From positions 62,001-126,000 of the IMG/VR virus record IMGVR_UViG_3300010354_000047: a stretch of 64,000 nucleotides of DNA. One strand, 5' to 3'. The position numbers were made by a program, and so were the translations under genes. The notes beneath the pieces are model-generated. The model searched no databases and had not been told where the DNA came from. It saw only the letters and a list, made by a program, of their open reading frames with translations. Positions 50,550-60,509 of this stretch are shown piece by piece (position 1 is the first letter of the stretch; each line of letters starts with the position of its first letter). The DNA comes from a virus.

Positions 50550-51155
50550 ATGACCTACACAGACGAGACGTTTTTTCAAGCGGTAAAAGGAGATCAGCGA
50601 GCGATCGAGAAGACGATCGTTCAATTTACGCCTTTGATCCATAAGTTTGCGCGAAAGTACAGATTTATGGAAAAGGACCACATGTATGATGACCTCGTGC
50701 AAGAGGGGAGGATCGGAATTCTAAAAGCGATTCGAAGTTTCAACACCGAATACCGAGTGAACGGGAGGCCAATTCGTCCGATGACTTGGATCTGGCATAA
50801 TGTTCGAGGTGCCGTTCAAGGCGCTGCCCGGAAAGGAAATAAGCACCCAAAGTACGCGCTTTCTCTTGAGCAATCGGACTGGGGCCACAATCTTGAAGAT
50901 TCAAACTTCTATGAAGTTAAGGAAGGATTGGGGTCCGTTAGCATCGCCGACCTTGTGAAAATCGGATGCGGGTCGCTGGATTCACAAAGAGCTCGCATCG
51001 TCTGTGACCGGTTTGGCCTTCTCGGGCGAGAACCGATGAGACAAGGTGATGTGGCAAGAAAGTACGGCCTTTCCAAGCAAGCCACAAACGGGCACATCTC
51101 CCGGTTTTCAAAGAAGGTTCGGGAAAGTAAGCCCGAGCTAAGGGACCTTATCTAA
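50550..51155 (+). CDS. Sigma70-family RNA polymerase sigma factor
   Basis: 201 residues. Region 2-like part: FTPLIHKFARKYRFMEKDHM, YDDLVQEGRIGILKAIRSF and MTWIWHNVRGAVQGAAR, corresponding to the conserved core-binding and -10 recognition helices. The C-terminal part has a region 4-like helix-turn-helix (GDVARKYGLSKQATNGHISR). It is a short, type III or ECF-like sigma. With a consensus host promoter upstream it is expected to be made early and to redirect the host polymerase to phage promoters. Confidence 0.82.
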   Translation: MTYTDETFFQAVKGDQRAIEKTIVQFTPLIHKFARKYRFMEKDHMYDDLVQEGRIGILKAIRSFNTEYRVNGRPIRPMTWIWHNVRGAVQGAARKGNKHPKYALSLEQSDWGHNLEDSNFYEVKEGLGSVSIADLVKIGCGSLDSQRARIVCDRFGLLGREPMRQGDVARKYGLSKQATNGHISRFSKKVRESKPELRDLI

Positions 51156-51163
51156 GATCGAGA

Positions 51164-51505
51164 ATGAGCGAAGTCATTGCAACCAAAGTCTATGACCTTG
51201 AGTGTCCTGTTTGCGACACCATGTCTAGATTTGACTCTTCAGTTTTTGAGGGGTTCCCTGAAGTGTCCTACCAGGCTATCACTTTCGATACTCTGAGAGA
51301 CAAAATAGAGACGAACAAAACGTCTCAGCGTATCTATCAGCTACTTGAAAGGTATGCCGTTTCTCCCTCTTACGAGATCGACTTCCCGACTTATGTGTTT
51401 ATGTCCAAGACTGGAAAGTACATTGGACACCTACAGGGCGCTCTCGACCTTCGGGAATTCCGTGAGGGGGTAAAATCCATTCTTGATCAAAAACATTCTG
51501 AATAA
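51164..51505 (+). CDS. Thioredoxin-like protein with CPVC
   Basis: 113 residues. Begins with a strand, LECPVCDTM (CxxC at residues 14-17), then a helix and a second strand and FPTYVFMSKTGKYIGHLQGA with the cis-Pro-like TY motif near the end, the order of thioredoxin/glutaredoxin folds. It may reduce ribonucleotide reductase or other phage proteins. Not a canonical WCGPC thioredoxin. Confidence 0.75.
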   Translation: MSEVIATKVYDLECPVCDTMSRFDSSVFEGFPEVSYQAITFDTLRDKIETNKTSQRIYQLLERYAVSPSYEIDFPTYVFMSKTGKYIGHLQGALDLREFREGVKSILDQKHSE

Positions 51506-51521
51506 TTGGGGTCTTTATGCA

Positions 51522-51881
51522 TTGGGAAACCATGTCTTGGTTAGTCTGTATGGAGTAGCTTTCTCAGTCCTCGATGATATCGAGGAAATGCGAAAAGCCT
51601 TCGATAAAGCTTGTGAGGCTATGAATGCTACGGTTCTTCATCGTTTTTCTCACAAGTTTCACCCACAAGGAGTGACCGTTGTCTACGCTCTTGCGGAATC
51701 CCACATAACAGCACACACGTTTCCTGAATTTGGAAGTGTTTCCCTAGACTGCTATACCTGTGGACACATGGACTCAATTATTGGGATGAATATTCTGATT
51801 GAGCACTTTCAACCAAAGAGTATCCACATAGAGAGGGTTAGCCGTGACAAAGAAGAAGAAGCTCGTCAAGTCCGCCCTTAA
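51522..51881 (+). CDS. speD: S-adenosylmethionine decarboxylase proenzyme
   Basis: About 119 residues from TTG 51522, which has GGGG 11 nt upstream and yields the usual LGxHxLVxLYG start; a TTG at 51483 in the same frame would add 13 residues and overlap the previous gene. The autocatalytic site is in LAESHITAHTFPE (Glu-Ser, the Ser becomes the pyruvoyl group), followed by SLDCYTCG with the catalytic Cys. Class 1B prokaryotic size and motifs are complete. The enzyme makes decarboxylated AdoMet for spermidine synthesis; speD is a known cyanophage accessory gene. Confidence 0.9.
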   Translation: MGNHVLVSLYGVAFSVLDDIEEMRKAFDKACEAMNATVLHRFSHKFHPQGVTVVYALAESHITAHTFPEFGSVSLDCYTCGHMDSIIGMNILIEHFQPKSIHIERVSRDKEEEARQVRP

Positions 51882-52725: not shown

Positions 52726-53331
52726 ATGAACATTTTCGCTGTAAACGAGAACCCAATTCTTGCGGCACGAGACTTACCCGACAAACTGGTAGTCAAAATG
52801 CCAACCGAAAGCTTGCAAATGCTCACTCCTTGGGCTTTCAATACTCACAAAGAGTACATTCGAAAACCTGACGGAACCAATTACGGAATCAAGGGTTTTG
52901 CAAACCATCCTTGTTCAAAATGGCTCTATGAGAGTCCGGCGAACGTCCATTGGTTGCTTGAACATGCTTTTGGAATGGCCGACGAGTATTGGCAGCGTTA
53001 CAACAAATACCACGGAACCCTTCACGGCTTGAATCAAATTCGAACTCTGGTCTATCGGAACCACAATTCTGATCAATCCAGAGACCATACCGAGTTCGTT
53101 CAAGCAATGCCGGATGAGTTCAAAGTTCCAGGGGATGCGGTCACAGCATACCGCAACTACATAAACGCTCACAAAGGCTATGCAGAGTGGCGATACAGCA
53201 AAAAACCTGACTGGTGGGACGAAGCCAAACATGAGCCCGTCCGCAAACAATATCTCGCTCAGCGAGAAGAAAACCTTATGAAACGCAGAAATGCCCAGCA
53301 TTCTAGAGTATCGAGAAGCCTACAAAGTTAA
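52726..53331 (+). CDS. Pyrimidine-dimer glycosylase-like cyanophage protein
   Basis: 201 residues. MNIFAVNENPILAARDLPDK, LVVKMPTESLQMLTPWAF, then NHPCSKWLYESPANVHWLLEHAF, EYWQRYNKYH parallel a cyanophage family often annotated as pyrimidine dimer DNA glycosylase (N-term NIF, D.H..KM..E..Q.L, HP...W...S..N..WL). Whether it repairs UV damage here cannot be told; no T4 DenV core is evident. Overlaps nrdB by 41 nt. Confidence 0.55.
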   Translation: MNIFAVNENPILAARDLPDKLVVKMPTESLQMLTPWAFNTHKEYIRKPDGTNYGIKGFANHPCSKWLYESPANVHWLLEHAFGMADEYWQRYNKYHGTLHGLNQIRTLVYRNHNSDQSRDHTEFVQAMPDEFKVPGDAVTAYRNYINAHKGYAEWRYSKKPDWWDEAKHEPVRKQYLAQREENLMKRRNAQHSRVSRSLQS

Positions 53332-54277
53332 CGGGTCGTTTGAATACCCTAAATTTTTCGACAAGTTCAAGAAAGCTCGTAAGTCGGTTTGGTCCCCAGA
53401 GGAGGTAATTTTTGAGAAAGACCTCCGAGACTGGCAGGATAGCTCAGACGATGAGAGAGAAATTATAGGGGGAATTCTACGCGGTTTCACACAGCTAGAG
53501 TGCCACGTTGGAAACTACTGGTCAAGCATCTCAAAATGGTTTCCAAAACACGAAGTGGCGGCTGTTTCCGACGAGTATGCCGCTTCAGAACGAGTTCATG
53601 CATGGGCTTACAACCACCTTTCTGACACCCTTGGGCTAGACGAATTTGAAGCCTTTCTGGGTGACCCAACAGCAAGAAACAAGATTGGGTTCTTCCTAAA
53701 GGACCGTCCAGTTAAAGAGTCGTTAGCAGTTTTCAGCGGAGCAGCTGAAGGGGTCAGCCTCTTTAGTTCCTTCGCTGTTTTGCTGTCTTTCAACCTGCTC
53801 GGAAAGTTCAAGGGGCTTTGCCAGATTATCTCTTGGTCCGCTCTTGATGAAACGGAGCACTCAAATACCGGGATCTCCCTCTTTAACCTTTTAGTGGATG
53901 AGGATCCGCTCACTCCCCAAGAGATTGAGAACATTGTTCACGGCTTCAAACTTGTAATTCAAAACGAGTTTTCCTTTATTGATCGAATCTTTGACGGTCG
54001 CGAGTTTGCTAATCCCCGCCTAAACAAGGAAGACTTAAAGCAGTACATTTTGTATCGGGCAAACAACCGTTTGGCTGCAATGCGTATACCAGGCTTCCGA
54101 TTCCCCTATAGTTTCGAATCGGCCAACAACATTCGTGTCTGGTTCCACCCTTTGATTCGTGGAACCACCAGCACGGACTTTTTCTCGCAGGCAAAAGATG
54201 GCTCTTCCTACATTGCCAAGCCTACGCAGGACTTTATGTCGGTAAACTTGAAAACCCTTGACTACAACCTAGAATGA
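53291..54277 (+). CDS. nrdB: Ribonucleotide reductase beta subunit (class Ia/Ib type)
   Basis: 328 residues. Metal and radical residues by alignment with E. coli R2: E70, E100 and H103 (ERVHAWAY), E153 (AEGVSLFSSFA), E187 and H190 (DETEH). The tyrosyl position, E+7 of the ERVH motif, is Tyr107, so the radical tyrosine is conserved. It makes, with NrdA, the enzyme converting ribonucleoside diphosphates to deoxy forms in the host cytoplasm. Stop overlaps nrdA start by 4 nt; preceded by the glycosylase-like gene in another frame. Confidence 0.95.
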   Translation: MPSILEYREAYKVNGSFEYPKFFDKFKKARKSVWSPEEVIFEKDLRDWQDSSDDEREIIGGILRGFTQLECHVGNYWSSISKWFPKHEVAAVSDEYAASERVHAWAYNHLSDTLGLDEFEAFLGDPTARNKIGFFLKDRPVKESLAVFSGAAEGVSLFSSFAVLLSFNLLGKFKGLCQIISWSALDETEHSNTGISLFNLLVDEDPLTPQEIENIVHGFKLVIQNEFSFIDRIFDGREFANPRLNKEDLKQYILYRANNRLAAMRIPGFRFPYSFESANNIRVWFHPLIRGTTSTDFFSQAKDGSSYIAKPTQDFMSVNLKTLDYNLE

Positions 54278-56238
54278 CAGACCACACACTTGTTGCACCT
54301 GAATGGCTTTCCCAAGAAGGGCTTCAAACACTGTCATCTGGTTACCTTCTTCCAGGTGAAACCCCTCGGAACATGTTCGAGCGTGTGTCCGGGCGTGCAG
54401 CTCACTTGAACGAGGATCCCACTCTGGAAGAAGACCTTTTTGAGTGCCTCTGGAAAGGTTGGATCGGGCTGGCAAGCCCGGTCGCAGCCAACTTTGGGAC
54501 GAATCGAGCGCTTCCTATCTCCTGCTACTCCATCCACATTAGCGACGATACCGGAAGTATCTACTCACACAAAAAGGAAGCAGCAATGCTTTCAAAGAAC
54601 GGAGGGGGAGTGGGAATCTGGTTTGGAGACATTCGCCCTTCTGGAGCTCCGATTCGCGGTGGCGGAAAGTCCTCAGGACTCGCAGGCTGGATGCAAGGGT
54701 ACGACCATGACGCTCGAATTGTTAGTCAAGGTGGTGTTCGCAGGGGCTCTTTTGCGCTCTACACTTCAATCGATCACCCAGACTACCCTGAGATCTTAGA
54801 AGCGAAAGACCACACAAAGGGAGACCCGAGGCAGTGGATTGATAGCAACGTTGCCGTCACCATCACAGATGAATTCATGGAAGACATGATTCAAAATGGT
54901 GGAAAAAAGCAAGAGTTGTTCGGAAAAACGATTGCAGCGCGACTCATGTCGGGAAGCCCTTACATGGTCTTTATCGACAACGTCAACAATCAGAATCCGG
55001 ATTGTTACAAAGAGAGAAACCTTAAGGTTTCCCTTAGCAATTTGTGCAGCGAGATCACACTTTACACAGATGAGAATCACTCTTTTGTATGTGTGCTTTC
55101 ATCTATGAATCTAGCTCGCTGGTTTGAGTGGAAGGACTGGAGGTCTCCTCGTTCTGGTCGTTCTGCACCAGAGATCGCGATTCACCTTCTGGAGGCAGTT
55201 GTCTCTGAGTTCATTCGGAAAGCCGAGCATATGACTGCTATGGGACGCTCGGTTCGCTTTGCGAAGAAGAGTCGAGCTCTGGGCCTCGGAACGATGGGCT
55301 TACATGCTCTTTACCAAAGCCAAATGCTCCCCTTCAAGTGTGAGCAATCTCGTCAGCTGAACGTCGAAGTCCACAAGTTCATTCGTGAACAAGCGGATAA
55401 AGCCTCAAGGGAACTGGCAGAAAGGTTCGGTGAGCCGGAGTGGTGTGTCGGAAGCGGTTTCCGTCATACGCATCGAACGGCTATTGCCCCCACAAAGACC
55501 AACTCTGTGATCAGTGGTGCGTTCTCAGAGGGGATTGCCCCGATCGAGATGAACTACTACGTGGCCAAACAAGACAAGGGAACTTTCGTTCGAAAGAACC
55601 CCTATCTTGAAAAGCTACTCTGCCAAAAAGGTGTCGGACCACAGATTTGGGACCAAATCGAAAGAGACCGAGGTAGTGTTCAGAACCTTGATTGCCTGAC
55701 CGGTAAAGAGAAGGAGGTGTTTCTAACCGCAAGGGAAATTGATCAGTTTGAGCTGATTAAGCAAGCCGGGGATCGACAGCCCCACGTTTGCCAGTCCCAG
55801 TCCTTAAACCTCTACCTCGCGGACCCAAATGTGAGTGCTGAGTACCTTTTTCGTTTGCATATCGCTGCGCATCGGGCGAAGGTCAAGTCTCTTTACTATC
55901 TGAAGTCTCGATCTGCTCTGATCGTAGATTCAAACGAGGAGGAATTCCTTGAGCCCGCCATTGTGATCACCAAGAGTGATTGCCCCTGGTGCGTGAAGCT
56001 AAAAGAAGAGCTGGAAACGGATGGAATAGATTTTCTTGAGCTCCCTCTGAACGAAGCAAAAGACAAAGGAATGTGGTCAGAGTCATGGAAGACAGTTCCA
56101 CAACTCTACCTGAATAATCAATGGGTCGGAGGATATACCGACTACGTTCAATTCAAAGAAACTAACCCTACCAAAGAAACAAATGCCTATGAAGACAGCA
56201 ACAGTGAGAACAATGAGTGTACAGCCTGCCACGCCTGA
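54274..56238 (+). CDS. nrdA: Ribonucleotide reductase alpha subunit with internal glutaredoxin
   Basis: 654 residues. The catalytic core is complete: LPISCYSIHISDD (first redox Cys), NLCSEITLYT (catalytic Cys plus Glu), SSMNLARWF, and the Tyr pair in KSLYYLKSRS. No N-terminal ATP-cone (residues 1-30 start directly with a PEWLSQEGLQTLSSGYL cap). Between the core end (about 545) and the tail is a glutaredoxin-type domain, residues about 560-625: CPWC at 570-573, TVPQLYL (cis-Pro) and GGYTD. The C-terminal redox pair CTAC (649-652) follows it, so the domain is inserted before the swinging arm. Coupled to nrdB by overlap. Confidence 0.95.
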   Translation: MTDHTLVAPEWLSQEGLQTLSSGYLLPGETPRNMFERVSGRAAHLNEDPTLEEDLFECLWKGWIGLASPVAANFGTNRALPISCYSIHISDDTGSIYSHKKEAAMLSKNGGGVGIWFGDIRPSGAPIRGGGKSSGLAGWMQGYDHDARIVSQGGVRRGSFALYTSIDHPDYPEILEAKDHTKGDPRQWIDSNVAVTITDEFMEDMIQNGGKKQELFGKTIAARLMSGSPYMVFIDNVNNQNPDCYKERNLKVSLSNLCSEITLYTDENHSFVCVLSSMNLARWFEWKDWRSPRSGRSAPEIAIHLLEAVVSEFIRKAEHMTAMGRSVRFAKKSRALGLGTMGLHALYQSQMLPFKCEQSRQLNVEVHKFIREQADKASRELAERFGEPEWCVGSGFRHTHRTAIAPTKTNSVISGAFSEGIAPIEMNYYVAKQDKGTFVRKNPYLEKLLCQKGVGPQIWDQIERDRGSVQNLDCLTGKEKEVFLTAREIDQFELIKQAGDRQPHVCQSQSLNLYLADPNVSAEYLFRLHIAAHRAKVKSLYYLKSRSALIVDSNEEEFLEPAIVITKSDCPWCVKLKEELETDGIDFLELPLNEAKDKGMWSESWKTVPQLYLNNQWVGGYTDYVQFKETNPTKETNAYEDSNSENNECTACHA

Positions 56239-56917
56239 GCCGGGAAAGAGGAGGCACAAAAGGTATCCGAAACTGACTCGAGACCAACAAAAACTGGTTG
56301 AGAGTCACAGGTGGATAGCTGGACGCCTCGCTTTTGGAGCAAAGTGTCTCACTGGGGGTCATACGGGTTCTCTCACACGAGAGGACCTCGAGTCTATAGC
56401 AAACTTTGCCCTGTGTGTTGCAGCAACTCGATACGATCCAGATAAACAAGTGCAGTTTAGCACGTATGCCTGGAGAACAGCTCGGGGATACATTCAACAC
56501 GCTCTTCGAGACTACTCTCGAATGGTGAAGACGCCTCGTTGGGTCGCGAAGTATAAGGAAAAGGTGGACCAGTTATTGAAACAAAACTTCTCCTATCCTG
56601 AGATAGCGGAACACCTAGGAATTCCTGAGAGTAAAGTCCTTATCGTGGACATGAGCACTTACAACTACCACGTGTCATATGATTCAAGTCCTGAAGACTG
56701 GACTACTCGAGAGTTTATCTTTAACGATGACGATGTGAGACCCTACGTGGTTTCTCCTGAGCTAATAAAAACTCTGAAAAGTCTCTCCGAAGCGGAGTTA
56801 GGGATTTTGGTCAAATACACTGAGGGTAAGGACATGTCGGAGGAAGAACGGGAGTGGGCCTCTGAGAACTTTTTTCATCTTCAGGCCATTGCCCACGGCA
56901 AACTTTCCGTCGAATGA
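56183..56917 (+). CDS. Second sigma70-family sigma factor
   Basis: 244 residues. Begins inside the nrdA end. Region 2 pattern: VQFSTYAWRTARGYIQHALR (residues about 93-112) and TPRWVAKY preceded by SLTREDLESIANFALCVAAT. The C-terminal half is charged and includes YPEIAEHLGIPESKV, a helix-turn-helix-like segment. Different in size and C-terminus from the sigma at 50550, so probably a second promoter specificity, for example middle or late. Confidence 0.78.
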   Translation: MPMKTATVRTMSVQPATPEPGKRRHKRYPKLTRDQQKLVESHRWIAGRLAFGAKCLTGGHTGSLTREDLESIANFALCVAATRYDPDKQVQFSTYAWRTARGYIQHALRDYSRMVKTPRWVAKYKEKVDQLLKQNFSYPEIAEHLGIPESKVLIVDMSTYNYHVSYDSSPEDWTTREFIFNDDDVRPYVVSPELIKTLKSLSEAELGILVKYTEGKDMSEEEREWASENFFHLQAIAHGKLSVE

Positions 56918-57836: not shown

Positions 57837-58325
57837 ATGACGACTCCCAGCTTCTCAAAAGAATCTCTCGAAAGGGTTAGGTCTCTCCTTCAAAGGGATG
57901 TAGACTGGGAAGGTCAGTTCTTGACCGGAACTTCTAAAGGAGCTTTCCCTTTGGTTGATCAAGTTCTCAAGCCGAGAGGTTTGCAAGGAATGGACATTGA
58001 CAACAGGCCTGGTTTACAGCGCGGGAGTCAAGGAAAAAGACGGGGAAGTTCCCTCTCAATCGCACAAGTTGCTCTTCCCAACGGAAACCCTCAATCGGGT
58101 CCTCGGTCACTCTCTACGAATCGCGGACTTGCAATGTTTGAAGAAGCTTGCAAAAAACGTCCGCAACCGAGAAGCCCCGAGCAAAACCAAGCGACGCAAG
58201 AGGCACAACAGGCGGCTCAACGACAGAACCAAACTTTTGACAAGATACCTGAGAAAAAAGTTGAAGAAATGGCTAAGAAGGGGGGAGAGGCAGAACGAAA
58301 GCCCCCACTACCTTACTGCAGCTAA
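57837..58325 (+). CDS. Hypothetical basic protein, 162 aa
   Basis: Starts 7 nt after the preceding stop and ends overlapping the next ATG. SFSKESLERVRSLLQRDVDW near the N-terminus resembles the leader seen in other genes. The rest is Pro/Arg/Gln-rich and low complexity, with QNQATQEAQQAAQRQNQ. An overlapping 130-residue frame at 57955 is rejected because it starts within this gene and lacks coupling. Function unknown. Confidence 0.55.
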   Translation: MTTPSFSKESLERVRSLLQRDVDWEGQFLTGTSKGAFPLVDQVLKPRGLQGMDIDNRPGLQRGSQGKRRGSSLSIAQVALPNGNPQSGPRSLSTNRGLAMFEEACKKRPQPRSPEQNQATQEAQQAAQRQNQTFDKIPEKKVEEMAKKGGEAERKPPLPYCS

Positions 58326-59068
58326 TGTACGGATCTTTCTCTCCTGAAGCCTTGCAGTTTTGGGACTTTGTTCGATGCCAAAGACCGAATGGGACCTTTT
58401 ATGGGACTTCCGGTCGGTGTAAGTCCGGTGTCCAAGTTTCCTCAAAACCTCAAAAACTTTCCGGAAGCCTACTTGGGGCGGGAAAAGAGAGCAAAGTATA
58501 TGACATTGGCAGGGACAGAGCACTCAAGGTGAGTACGGCAAACTATGAAAGTCTAGAAACACATCAGATTGCTTCTCAGCTCGGAGTCGCTCCAAGGCTG
58601 TACGCTCACGGAAAGATGCGTGATGGTAGAAACTTTCAGATCGTTGAGAAGGTTAAGACAAGCGATATCCATGGACTGGGACAACCCGGATCTAGGGCCA
58701 AGGAAATTGAAGACCTTGATGAAAATCAGCTATTTCGTGAAAAAGAGGCTTACAAAGCCAGTCTGAAACTTAATGCGGGCGGGGTTGCGCACGGGGACCT
58801 CCACGGAGGAAATATAAAGTGGGACGAGAACAATCAGAAAGCTATCCTTCTTGATTTTGATAATGCCACTAAGAGCTGGAAGGACGCTCGCGCTGAAGCT
58901 GCGAGTACGCTAAATACCATAGGTATTCGCCTCGAGAACTCGGGATATTACGATGAGGCCGACGAGGTGTACTCAAAAAGTTCGATAATTTCCCGGATAT
59001 CCTCGATAAAAATGTCAAAGGCTATCGAAGAGACTTCCGGTCTGCTAGATTCTGTTTTTCCGGGGTGA
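58325..59068 (+). CDS. Kinase-like protein with C-x13-C signature
   Basis: 247 residues. MYGSFSPEALQFW leader leads straight into the C-x13-C signature (Cys18, Cys32; FVRCQRPNGTFYGTSGRC). Kinase-like fold follows: LGAGKESKVYD at 50-60 (Gly loop), K68 (ALKVS), HGDLHGGN at 156-163 (D158), DFD at 177-179. This loop is of APH/RIO type. Substrate unknown. The leader, signature and kinase order is unlike the 15796 gene, which uses the other signature, so the same enzyme class occurs behind both tags. Confidence 0.75.
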   Translation: MYGSFSPEALQFWDFVRCQRPNGTFYGTSGRCKSGVQVSSKPQKLSGSLLGAGKESKVYDIGRDRALKVSTANYESLETHQIASQLGVAPRLYAHGKMRDGRNFQIVEKVKTSDIHGLGQPGSRAKEIEDLDENQLFREKEAYKASLKLNAGGVAHGDLHGGNIKWDENNQKAILLDFDNATKSWKDARAEAASTLNTIGIRLENSGYYDEADEVYSKSSIISRISSIKMSKAIEETSGLLDSVFPG

Positions 59069-59576: not shown

Positions 59577-59736
59577 AGTATGCCATCAAAGCGTAGACTT
59601 CTTCCGCAGAGAGCCCACCATTTTTCTCAACTGCTTGAAGGATTTTCTCAGCCTTTTCATCAGCAGCAGGTGTGTTCATGCGAACGAGACCTTTTCTCTT
59701 TACCATTGCTCGAAAATTAGCGCTTTGTTCTTTCAT
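59575..59736 (-). CDS. Small protein, 53 aa, end of minus-strand operon
   Basis: Minus-strand frame with an ATG at 59734-59736 overlapping the stop of the kinase-like gene (ATGA). Product: MKEQSANFRAMVKRKGLVRM, NTPAADEKAEKILQAVEKNG, GLSAEEVYALMAY. Short, basic then acidic helix. Below usual length cut-offs but supported by the overlap and the terminator after it. Function unknown. Confidence 0.65.
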   Translation of the reverse strand: MKEQSANFRAMVKRKGLVRMNTPAADEKAEKILQAVEKNGGLSAEEVYALMAY

Positions 59737-60509
59737 TTTAGGTTCTGAATTTCTTGAAGGTACTCTTCTGCTAACCTAACTTTCTTAGCCTTATTCGCTT
59801 TACTCGTTGATTTCGTGATCTTCTTATACTCTTCTAGGTATTTGTTGACAATCTGAAAGTACGGATCCGTAGAGAGTTCGGGATTGTCCCACCCAATTAG
59901 CTTCGCTATCTTTGACAAGTCCTGCAAAACTCGATTCGGCTGCACGGAGGTCTTAACAATCAATCCAAAGTCAACCAGCTTCACATTGTTGTTGTCCACA
60001 AGAAACTGCTGACTATGTGCGTCACCATGGGCATAACCTATTCTATGCAGGTCTCGCAGAGCGTAAGCGGCTTTTCTAGCCTGGGTAGCATTCATGATAG
60101 CCTCCCCTTCTTCTTTCCCGAAACTCTTCCAAAGGGGTTTTCCTTTGGCTAATTCCATCTCAAGATGCTTCGGACTTGAAGAAATAATTCTGGGGGAATG
60201 GCCTAACTCCCCCATGCGAGTCGCGACCTGAATCTCTTCGTCTCCAAACTCCGAAGACTCATCCTTCATAATCTTGACAACTCTCTTTCCGTCGGGGCTT
60301 ATACGAACCTCCCCTTGGTAACCTTCCGCAAGTTTGTTCCAACTGCTGTAATCAGGCTCTTGGTTCAGTCTCCCTGAAGCTTGCTCCAGAACAGCTCCCC
60401 ATTTTCCGGGGAGAGCTTTACGGCATTTTTTGCTGCTAGAAACGCAGGCTCCTCCGCAGCTTATGCCTTTTGAGCAGTTTAGCTTTCCTCTCACGATATT
60501 ATAGCCCAT
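59733..60509 (-). CDS. Kinase-like protein with C-x5-C-x3-C-x6-C signature
   Basis: 258 residues. Signature at Cys12, 18, 22, 29 (LNCSKGISCGGACVSSSKKC). Kinase-like core: K79 (VVKIMKD), HGDAHSQQF at 161-169 and DFG at 180-182. The usual Asn three to five places after the catalytic Asp is Gln here (HGDAHSQQ), so activity may be altered or the protein pseudokinase-like. Overlaps the peptidase by 19 nt. Third kinase-like protein of the window. Confidence 0.72.
   Translation of the reverse strand: MGYNIVRGKLNCSKGISCGGACVSSSKKCRKALPGKWGAVLEQASGRLNQEPDYSSWNKLAEGYQGEVRISPDGKRVVKIMKDESSEFGDEEIQVATRMGELGHSPRIISSSPKHLEMELAKGKPLWKSFGKEEGEAIMNATQARKAAYALRDLHRIGYAHGDAHSQQFLVDNNNVKLVDFGLIVKTSVQPNRVLQDLSKIAKLIGWDNPELSTDPYFQIVNKYLEEYKKITKSTSKANKAKKVRLAEEYLQEIQNLK

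What the first reader, a model, noticed from the sequence alone, without database searches (positions are those of the whole stretch)
54274..56238. Glutaredoxin domain inserted before the NrdA redox tail
NrdA normally ends with a flexible arm carrying a CxxC that is reduced by thioredoxin or glutaredoxin. Here a glutaredoxin-like domain with CPWC lies between the core and the final CTAC, so the reductant is built in. The protein also lacks an ATP-cone, suggesting no dATP shut-off.
Basis: partly seen in the sequence, partly recalled or inferred. Interest (0 to 1): 0.65.

Follow-up and report, generated by a model that had tools for sequence, protein, structure and literature searches.

The report
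Phage enzyme with built-in glutaredoxin
A cyanobacterial virus makes its DNA building blocks with a ribonucleotide reductase that carries its own recharging protein, a glutaredoxin, inside the flexible arm that normally has to be recharged by a separate protein; a few named viruses already have the same layout, but it turns out to be widespread in water viruses, to occur in two different kinds of this enzyme, and not yet to have been tested in the laboratory.

Summary
Confirmed. Window 54274-56238 (+) encodes a 654-aa class I NrdA laid out as catalytic core (1-543), flexible linker, complete dithiol glutaredoxin (about 560-632, C570-P-W-C573), flexible linker, terminal C649-T-A-C652. All catalytic and glutaredoxin residues are present, AlphaFold2 folds the domain confidently, and Foldseek's top hits for it are glutaredoxins. 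A core-only search of IMG/VR shows the domain in every readable relative of this clade. In 17 phage records with the fusion, plus the window's own genome, the fused domain is the only Pfam glutaredoxin. Related unfused phage NrdAs often have a free grx, in four cases 12-15 nt downstream.
The best explanation is a GSH-driven reductant acting in cis on the tail. Facklamia NrdB-Grx is a biochemical precedent, but nothing here has been assayed. Lack of an ATP-cone is real but ordinary for NrdAi/class Id.
Novelty is moderate. [quoted passage not shown] New here: how widespread it is, the fixed position inside the tail, its absence from the bacterial relatives examined, and its occurrence on two separate NrdA lineages (one-clade p-AU 1.5e-8).

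The parts
54274..56238 (+). nrdA-grx fusion gene, 654 aa: core - linker - glutaredoxin - linker - CxxC
54274..55902 (+). NrdA catalytic core, residues 1-543 (all-alpha domain plus 10-stranded barrel), class Id-like; no ATP-cone
   Evidence: Pfam; nearest solved structures 6dqw and 6dqx, class Id alpha, by sequence and fold
54523..54525 (+). C84, active-site redox cysteine (E. coli C225 equivalent)
   Evidence: invariant in A2; equivalence from family knowledge
55039..55053 (+). N256-L-C258-S-E260, finger loop with the thiyl-radical cysteine (E. coli N437-C439-E441)
   Evidence: N256, C258, E260 invariant in A2
55090..55092 (+). C273, second active-site redox cysteine (E. coli C462 equivalent)
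   Evidence: invariant in A2
55894..55899 (+). Y541-Y542, radical-transfer tyrosine dyad at the end of the barrel
   Evidence: invariant in A2
55903..55950 (+). linker 1, residues 544-559, predicted disordered
   Evidence: pLDDT below 50
55951..56169 (+). glutaredoxin domain, residues 560-632
   Evidence: Pfam PF00462 E 3.5e-8; E. coli Grx3 1fov E 2.2e-9; AF2 pLDDT about 82-92; Foldseek top hits are glutaredoxins; pN 0.20 against pS 0.93 versus L003
55981..55992 (+). C570-P-W-C573, dithiol glutaredoxin active site
   Evidence: both Cys and the Pro invariant in 71 clade A and 59 clade B distinct sequences
56092..56100 (+). T607-V608-P609, cis-Pro / GSH-binding motif
   Evidence: TVPQ in 71 of 71 clade A sequences
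56128..56142 (+). G619-G620-Y-T-D623, GSH gamma-glutamyl binding motif
   Evidence: GG followed by an aromatic residue in nearly all clade A sequences
56170..56217 (+). linker 2, residues 633-648, predicted disordered, evolving with little amino-acid constraint
   Evidence: pLDDT below 50; pN 0.45 against pS 0.41 versus L003 for residues 633-654
56218..56235 (+). terminal C649-T-A-C652-H-A, the tail cysteine pair of class I RNR
   Evidence: C649 and C652 invariant in A2; CxxC at the end of all 75 complete core-search hits
53291..54277 (+). nrdB, radical-generating subunit, 328 aa, overlapping nrdA by 4 nt (ATGA); no ATP-cone; NrdBi signature E70 and W77, with Gly at +4
   Evidence: signature from PMC6754362
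51164..51505 (+). thioredoxin-like small protein with CPVC, possible second phage redoxin (weak)
   Evidence: Pfam Thioredoxin_2 E 0.014, below cut-off; conserved upstream of nrdBA in several relatives

Best explanation
It is the catalytic subunit of a phage class I (class Id/NrdAi-like) ribonucleotide reductase whose own glutaredoxin is inserted in the flexible C-terminal arm, just before the terminal cysteine pair. Proposed cycle: reduction of a ribonucleotide leaves a C84-C273 disulfide in the active site. The arm swings C649/C652 in and takes up the disulfide. The arm disulfide is then reduced by C570 of the tethered glutaredoxin, in the same chain or in the partner of the alpha dimer, leaving C570-C573. 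That is re-reduced by glutathione, with host glutathione reductase and NADPH behind it. Tethering keeps the reductant at high local concentration and frees the phage enzyme from finding a matching host redoxin. This matters because the marine Synechococcus and Prochlorococcus hosts of related phages carry class II RNR. With no ATP-cone on NrdA or NrdB the enzyme probably lacks the usual dATP off-switch. Shown here: anatomy, conservation, predicted fold, absence of a second Pfam glutaredoxin, clade-wide presence, two lineages. Inferred: every redox step, cis action, GSH as donor, the dATP behaviour.
For: Layout and all motif residues. AF2: folded Grx between two disordered linkers. Grx fold and GSH-site residues K567, TVP and GGYTD. 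Core search with no Grx in the query: 77 of 77 readable tails carry Grx and 75 of 75 complete ones end in CxxC. Purifying selection on Grx but not on the tail linker. The only Pfam Grx in the window's genome and in all 17 fused records, 7 of them named phage genomes. Related unfused NrdAs have a free grx in 9 of 17 records, starting 12-15 nt downstream of nrdA in Atu_ph07, Phosso, 10AMN and 1.193.O. NrdB-fused phages again have a single Grx (3 of 3). Functional precedent: the Facklamia ignava NrdB-fused Grx reduces its RNR by a dithiol mechanism (PMC6187632). Hosts with class II RNR (PMC6370689).
Against: No biochemical data. AF2 says nothing reliable about whether the tail reaches both the Grx and the active site (linkers below pLDDT 50). 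A second, weakly thioredoxin-like CPVC protein lies 2 kb upstream and could serve the tail instead. 8 of 17 unfused relatives have no Pfam Grx at all and presumably use host redoxins, so a phage-borne reductant is not a general need. The host of this phage is unknown.
Confidence: 0.85

Rival explanations
1. The tail CxxC is reduced mainly by a separate redoxin (host thioredoxin/glutaredoxin, or the phage CPVC thioredoxin-like protein at 51164-51505), and the fused Grx has another job, such as deglutathionylating the tail, reducing NrdB or other phage proteins, or repairing the enzyme under oxidative stress.
For: A thioredoxin-like ORF with CPVC lies upstream and is conserved in several close relatives. 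Many unfused phage relatives have no Pfam Grx of their own.
Against: In both lineages the Grx sits in the same place, just before the tail cysteines, with CxxC kept at the end. Fused genomes have no other Pfam glutaredoxin. The CPVC protein scores below Pfam's cut-off and no PF00085 thioredoxin is found in the genome.
Confidence: 0.1
2. The domain binds an Fe-S cluster or works as a glutathionylation-responsive regulator of the RNR rather than as its electron donor.
For: Some dithiol glutaredoxins bind 2Fe-2S (family knowledge).
Against: The second active-site position is Pro in all 130 distinct sequences; Fe-S-binding dithiol Grxs have other residues there (CSYC, CGYC; family knowledge). The second Cys is invariant, which fits dithiol disulfide exchange.
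Confidence: 0.03
3. The domain is a degenerate passenger or an artefact of assembly or frameshift.
For: None found.
Against: ORF uninterrupted; 69 distinct ORFs in the core search; pN 0.20 against pS 0.93 over the Grx; all functional residues invariant.
Confidence: 0.02

Closest known systems
NrdA of cyanophages S-TIM5/S-TIM54 and S-CBWM1 (deposited; NrdAi by Harrison et al. 2019 for S-TIM5)
   Same: Same order core - Grx (CPYC) - CxxC end, same core clade, 57-63% identity, no other Pfam Grx in the genome.
   Different: Annotated simply as NrdA / alpha subunit. The papers read discuss class and ATP-cone, not the Grx. S-CBWM1 also has an intein; S-TIM5 has an HNH gene between nrdB and nrdA.
Phage C48C1, Delftia phage PhiW-14, Acinetobacter phages SH-Ab 15599 and nACB2, and many IMG/VR contigs (second lineage)
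   Same: Same order core - Grx (CP[F/W/Y/H/N]C) - CxxC end.
   Different: Core belongs to a separate NrdA lineage beside alphaproteobacterial sequences; C48C1's NrdB has Asp and Tyr at the NrdBk signature positions.
Facklamia ignava NrdB (Grx - ATP-cone - NrdB), and Francisella/virus Grx-NrdB fusions (PMC6187632)
   Same: Grx covalently joined to a class I RNR; in F. ignava it is shown to reduce the RNR with GSH.
   Different: Grx is N-terminal on the radical subunit with an ATP-cone; here it is inside the tail of the catalytic subunit and neither subunit has a cone. [quoted passage not shown]
Class Id RNR alpha of Flavobacterium johnsoniae (6dqw) and Actinobacillus ureae (6dqx)
   Same: Best core match by sequence (E 4.4e-132) and fold (E about 1e-49); minimal class I alpha without ATP-cone.
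   Different: No Grx domain in the solved chains.
Class II NrdJd with cysteine-rich zinc-finger C-terminal domain (PMC5704485)
   Same: A folded domain near the C-terminal redox cysteines.
   Different: Zinc finger / IscU-like domain, not a Grx; AdoCbl enzyme; no redoxin found to serve it.

Membership tests
Class I RNR catalytic subunit (NrdA) | Redox cysteine pair, N-x-C-x-E finger loop, YY dyad, terminal CxxC | tested here: met
   C84/C273, N256-C258-E260, Y541-Y542, C649/C652 invariant in 36 sequences
Class I RNR catalytic subunit (NrdA) | Encoded with a ferritin-like NrdB | tested here: met
   nrdB at 53291-54277, PF00268 E 2e-46, overlapping nrdA by 4 nt
Class Id (NrdAi/NrdBi) | Alpha core groups with class Id alphas and lacks the ATP-cone | tested here: met
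   6dqw/6dqx best by sequence and fold; same 100-supported half of the tree as F. johnsoniae; no cone; S-TIM5 placed in NrdAi by PMC6370689
Class Id (NrdAi/NrdBi) | NrdB first metal ligand Asp->Glu and Tyr->Trp | tested here: met
   E70 and W77 in the window NrdB, same in S-TIM5 and S-CBWM1
Class Id (NrdAi/NrdBi) | Lys four residues after the Glu (found only in the characterised subgroup) | tested here: not met
   Gly in window and S-TIM5, Arg in S-CBWM1; PMC6754362 says Lys is conserved only in a subgroup of NrdBi
Class Id (NrdAi/NrdBi) | Mn(IV)Mn(III) cofactor, no tyrosyl radical | not testable with these tools
   needs metal analysis and EPR; Tyr at the radical position is kept
Dithiol glutaredoxin (PF00462, Grx3-like) | CPxC, cis-Pro TVP, GG-aromatic GSH site, Grx fold | tested here: met
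Dithiol glutaredoxin (PF00462, Grx3-like) | GSH-dependent oxidoreductase activity | not testable with these tools
   HED assay needed
NrdH-redoxin | Grx-like fold lacking the GSH site, reduced by thioredoxin reductase | tested here: not met
   the GSH-site residues (Lys/Arg-3, TVP, GG) are present and conserved
Grx-NrdB fusion of the Facklamia/Francisella type | Grx at the N-terminus of NrdB | tested here: not met
   the window NrdB has no Grx; the Grx is in NrdA
NrdJd cysteine-rich domain | Four Zn-binding Cys plus redox Cys in the C-terminal domain of an AdoCbl enzyme | tested here: not met
   only C570, C573, C649 and C652 lie after residue 506

The most novel reading that the evidence does not exclude
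Phages have at least twice, in the NrdAi (class Id) and NrdAk-like lineages, converted class I RNR into a self-reducing one-chain machine by placing a Grx inside the arm, so that each tail is reduced in cis, needing only glutathione from the host and having no dATP off-switch: a convergent, virus-specific RNR design.
Probability: 0.35. Interest if true: 0.65.

Novelty: new variant of a known kind. Interest (0 to 1): 0.45.

Why it matters
Class I RNR is described as using a disordered tail served by an external redoxin (PMC9669993 contrasts this with folded domains in class II tails and does not mention Grx). A widespread virus-only design with the reductant inside the tail would be a natural single-chain system for a hard step to study, namely how the tail disulfide is handed from active site to redoxin, and in cis or in trans. 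It would also explain how phages run a class I RNR in hosts that have class II. It flags that many viral 'NrdA' entries are probably bifunctional.

Tried and rejected
Chance or artefact: rejected. Unique to this phage: rejected. Fusion by simple loss of the stop between nrdA and a downstream grx: it would give core-CxxC-Grx, but all cases are core-Grx-CxxC, so the Grx was inserted upstream of the tail or a new tail was added (inference). Single origin on the core tree: rejected (p-AU 1.45e-8). Single origin of the Grx cassette: undecided; 72 columns, one clade not rejected (p-AU 0.698), so cassette transfer between NrdA lineages remains possible. Bacterial fusion: none among 71 readable bacterial relatives, tails 23-61 aa, although the scan kept only the best 80 of 394. 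The Thermus oshimai plasmid hit reaching residue 620 is a read-through alignment past the stop; no Grx there. One search failed through a faulty motif pattern and was replaced. The two viruses with grx::nrdA in PMC6187632 could not be identified because supplements were closed; S-TIM5 and PhiW-14 are a guess from the fact that both have older RefSeq records.

Full report
Observation. The ORF at 54274-56238 encodes 654 aa. Pfam assigns RNR N-domain 12-78, the RNR barrel (E 7.9e-93) and Glutaredoxin 563-617 (E 3.5e-8, above the curated cut-off), and no ATP-cone. The catalytic set is complete: C84, N256/C258/E260, C273, Y541/Y542 and terminal C649-T-A-C652. The glutaredoxin set is also complete: K567, C570-P-W-C573, T607-V-P609, G619-G620-Y-T-D623. 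The residue equivalences to E. coli NrdA and Grx3 are from family knowledge. AlphaFold2 on 36 sequences gives mean pLDDT 82.5, with the Grx block at about 82-92 and the two flanking segments 544-559 and 633-654 below 50. The core's nearest folds are class Id alphas 6dqw and 6dqx. The isolated 99-residue C-terminal piece folds as a glutaredoxin, with Foldseek's top hits all glutaredoxins or Grx domains; by sequence it is nearest to E. coli Grx3.

Setting. nrdB (53291-54277) overlaps nrdA by four bases. The gene order around it (dCMP deaminase, sigma factor, high-light-inducible-type protein, pyrimidine-dimer glycosylase, nrdB, nrdA, sigma factor, small heat-shock protein) follows Synechococcus phage S-CBWM1, but no DNA-level match to described phages was found. 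The window is part of a 136,373-bp IMG/VR virus record that also has a psbA-type photosynthetic reaction-centre gene, so this is a cyanophage. The partner NrdB carries the NrdBi signatures Glu (E70) and Trp (W77) listed in PMC6754362, but Gly where the characterised class Id enzymes have Lys. So the RNR is best called NrdAi/NrdBi, class Id-like, with an unproven cofactor.

Distribution. Full-length matches with the same order are in S-CBWM1 and five S-TIM5-group records and, at lower identity, in C48C1, Delftia PhiW-14 and two Acinetobacter phages. In IMG/VR a Grx-containing query returned 546 relatives before hitting its limit; the best 80 were read and all 79 untruncated loci have core-Grx-CxxC. 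Because that query favours Grx carriers, the test was repeated with the core alone. Of 80 loci, 77 had a readable tail with Grx, 75 of these are complete and all 75 end in CxxC, two break off after the Grx begins, one breaks off inside the domain after CPWC, and two were unreadable. The domain is therefore universal in this clade as sampled (69 distinct ORFs). Among bacterial relatives, 71 readable tails are 23-61 aa and none has a Grx; the scan covered only the best-matching relatives.

One glutaredoxin per genome. The fused domain is the only Pfam glutaredoxin in the window's genome and in all 17 fused phage records searched. Among unfused relatives, 9 of 17 have one to three free glutaredoxins and 8 have none; three phages with Grx on NrdB again have only that one. 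In four unfused relatives the free grx starts 12-15 nt after nrdA. This pattern argues that the domain is the RNR's redoxin, housed in alpha, in beta, or in a neighbouring gene. Whole-record ATP-cone scans of 15 fused relatives are negative.

Evolution. On a core tree of 64 sequences the fused proteins fall into two separate groups: the window/S-TIM5/S-CBWM1 group (same half as F. johnsoniae class Id), and the C48C1/PhiW-14/Acinetobacter group beside alphaproteobacterial sequences. Forcing one clade is rejected (p-AU 1.45e-8). C48C1's NrdB has Asp and Tyr at the NrdBk positions, in line with a second RNR subclass. The Grx tree is too short to decide whether the domain was captured twice or the Grx-tail cassette moved between lineages (p-AU 0.698). 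The branches include long ones, so the exact placement of PhiW-14 and Mx1 is unsure.

Selection. Against the 79%-identical relative L003, nonsynonymous difference over the Grx is 0.20 per site against a saturated synonymous 0.93. Over the 22 residues of the tail (633-654) the two are about equal (0.45 and 0.41), while the two cysteines never change. This fits a maintained enzyme domain and a free linker that must only reach. Synonymous saturation means these are qualitative.

Mechanism. The most economical reading is an intramolecular relay: active site (C84/C273) to tail (C649/C652) to tethered Grx (C570/C573) to glutathione. The invariant Pro and second Cys favour dithiol exchange over Fe-S binding, and the GSH-site residues argue against an NrdH type (family knowledge). 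The precedent is F. ignava, whose NrdB-fused Grx reduces its RNR mainly by the dithiol route (PMC6187632). Marine Synechococcus/Prochlorococcus hosts of related phages have class II RNR (PMC6370689), which gives a reason to carry the partner along. Cis or trans action, GSH as donor and the lack of dATP inhibition are inferred.

What is known. [quoted passage not shown] the supplement was not readable. PMC6370689 trims Grx from beta sequences and places S-TIM5 in NrdAi but says nothing of a Grx on alpha. PMC9669993 and PMC9531940 describe class I tails as disordered with CxxC and do not mention redoxin domains. Class Id alphas normally lack the ATP-cone, so that part of the finding is ordinary. 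The paper library lacks most subscription journals, so an earlier description elsewhere cannot be excluded.

Verdict. Real, well conserved, mechanism very plausible and directly testable. The kind (Grx fused to RNR) is known; the in-tail position on the catalytic subunit, its breadth in viruses and its presence on two NrdA lineages appear not to have been described in the papers that could be searched.

Noticed in passing
window 51164-51505 (+): 113-aa thioredoxin-like ORF with CPVC near its start; below Pfam cut-off but conserved upstream of nrdBA in L003, L004, L005, L229-L231 and L271. Possible second phage redoxin.
   Followed up: partly
L002 5760-6785, L030, L005, L043, L045: Inteins in nrdA of relatives; in L030/L005 directly after the finger-loop cysteine (SNLC|F) and in L043/L045 at the C84-type cysteine (PVSC|L).
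   Followed up: no
window 53498-53521 (NrdB residues 70-77): NrdBi-type NrdB with the Glu and Trp signatures but Gly (Arg in S-CBWM1) in place of the Lys of all characterised class Id enzymes; the cofactor of this subgroup is unknown.
   Followed up: partly
window 50550-51155 and 56183-56917 (+): Two sigma-70-like genes flank the nucleotide-metabolism block; the second overlaps the 3' end of nrdA by up to 56 nt if its first ATG is used.
   Followed up: no
window 51483-51881 (+): S-adenosylmethionine decarboxylase (SpeD-type, Pfam E 2.7e-31), an auxiliary metabolic gene.
   Followed up: no
window 52726-53331 (+): Pyrimidine-dimer DNA glycosylase-like protein (E 3.9e-7), with a relative in S-CBWM1 gp147.
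   Followed up: no
window 58325-59068 (+) and 59733-60509 (-): Two small kinase-like proteins (APH and ABC1/protein-kinase matches near cut-off) with HGD motifs; function unclear.
   Followed up: no
L202, L203, L206: Phages with a C-terminal Grx on NrdB (Lacusarx, Vibrio F100, Citromicrobium RXM), again the only Pfam Grx in those genomes.
   Followed up: partly
L142: A 'Microbacteriaceae' MAG contig carries an NrdA almost identical to Bordetella phage MW2; probably a phage contig binned with the MAG.
   Followed up: no
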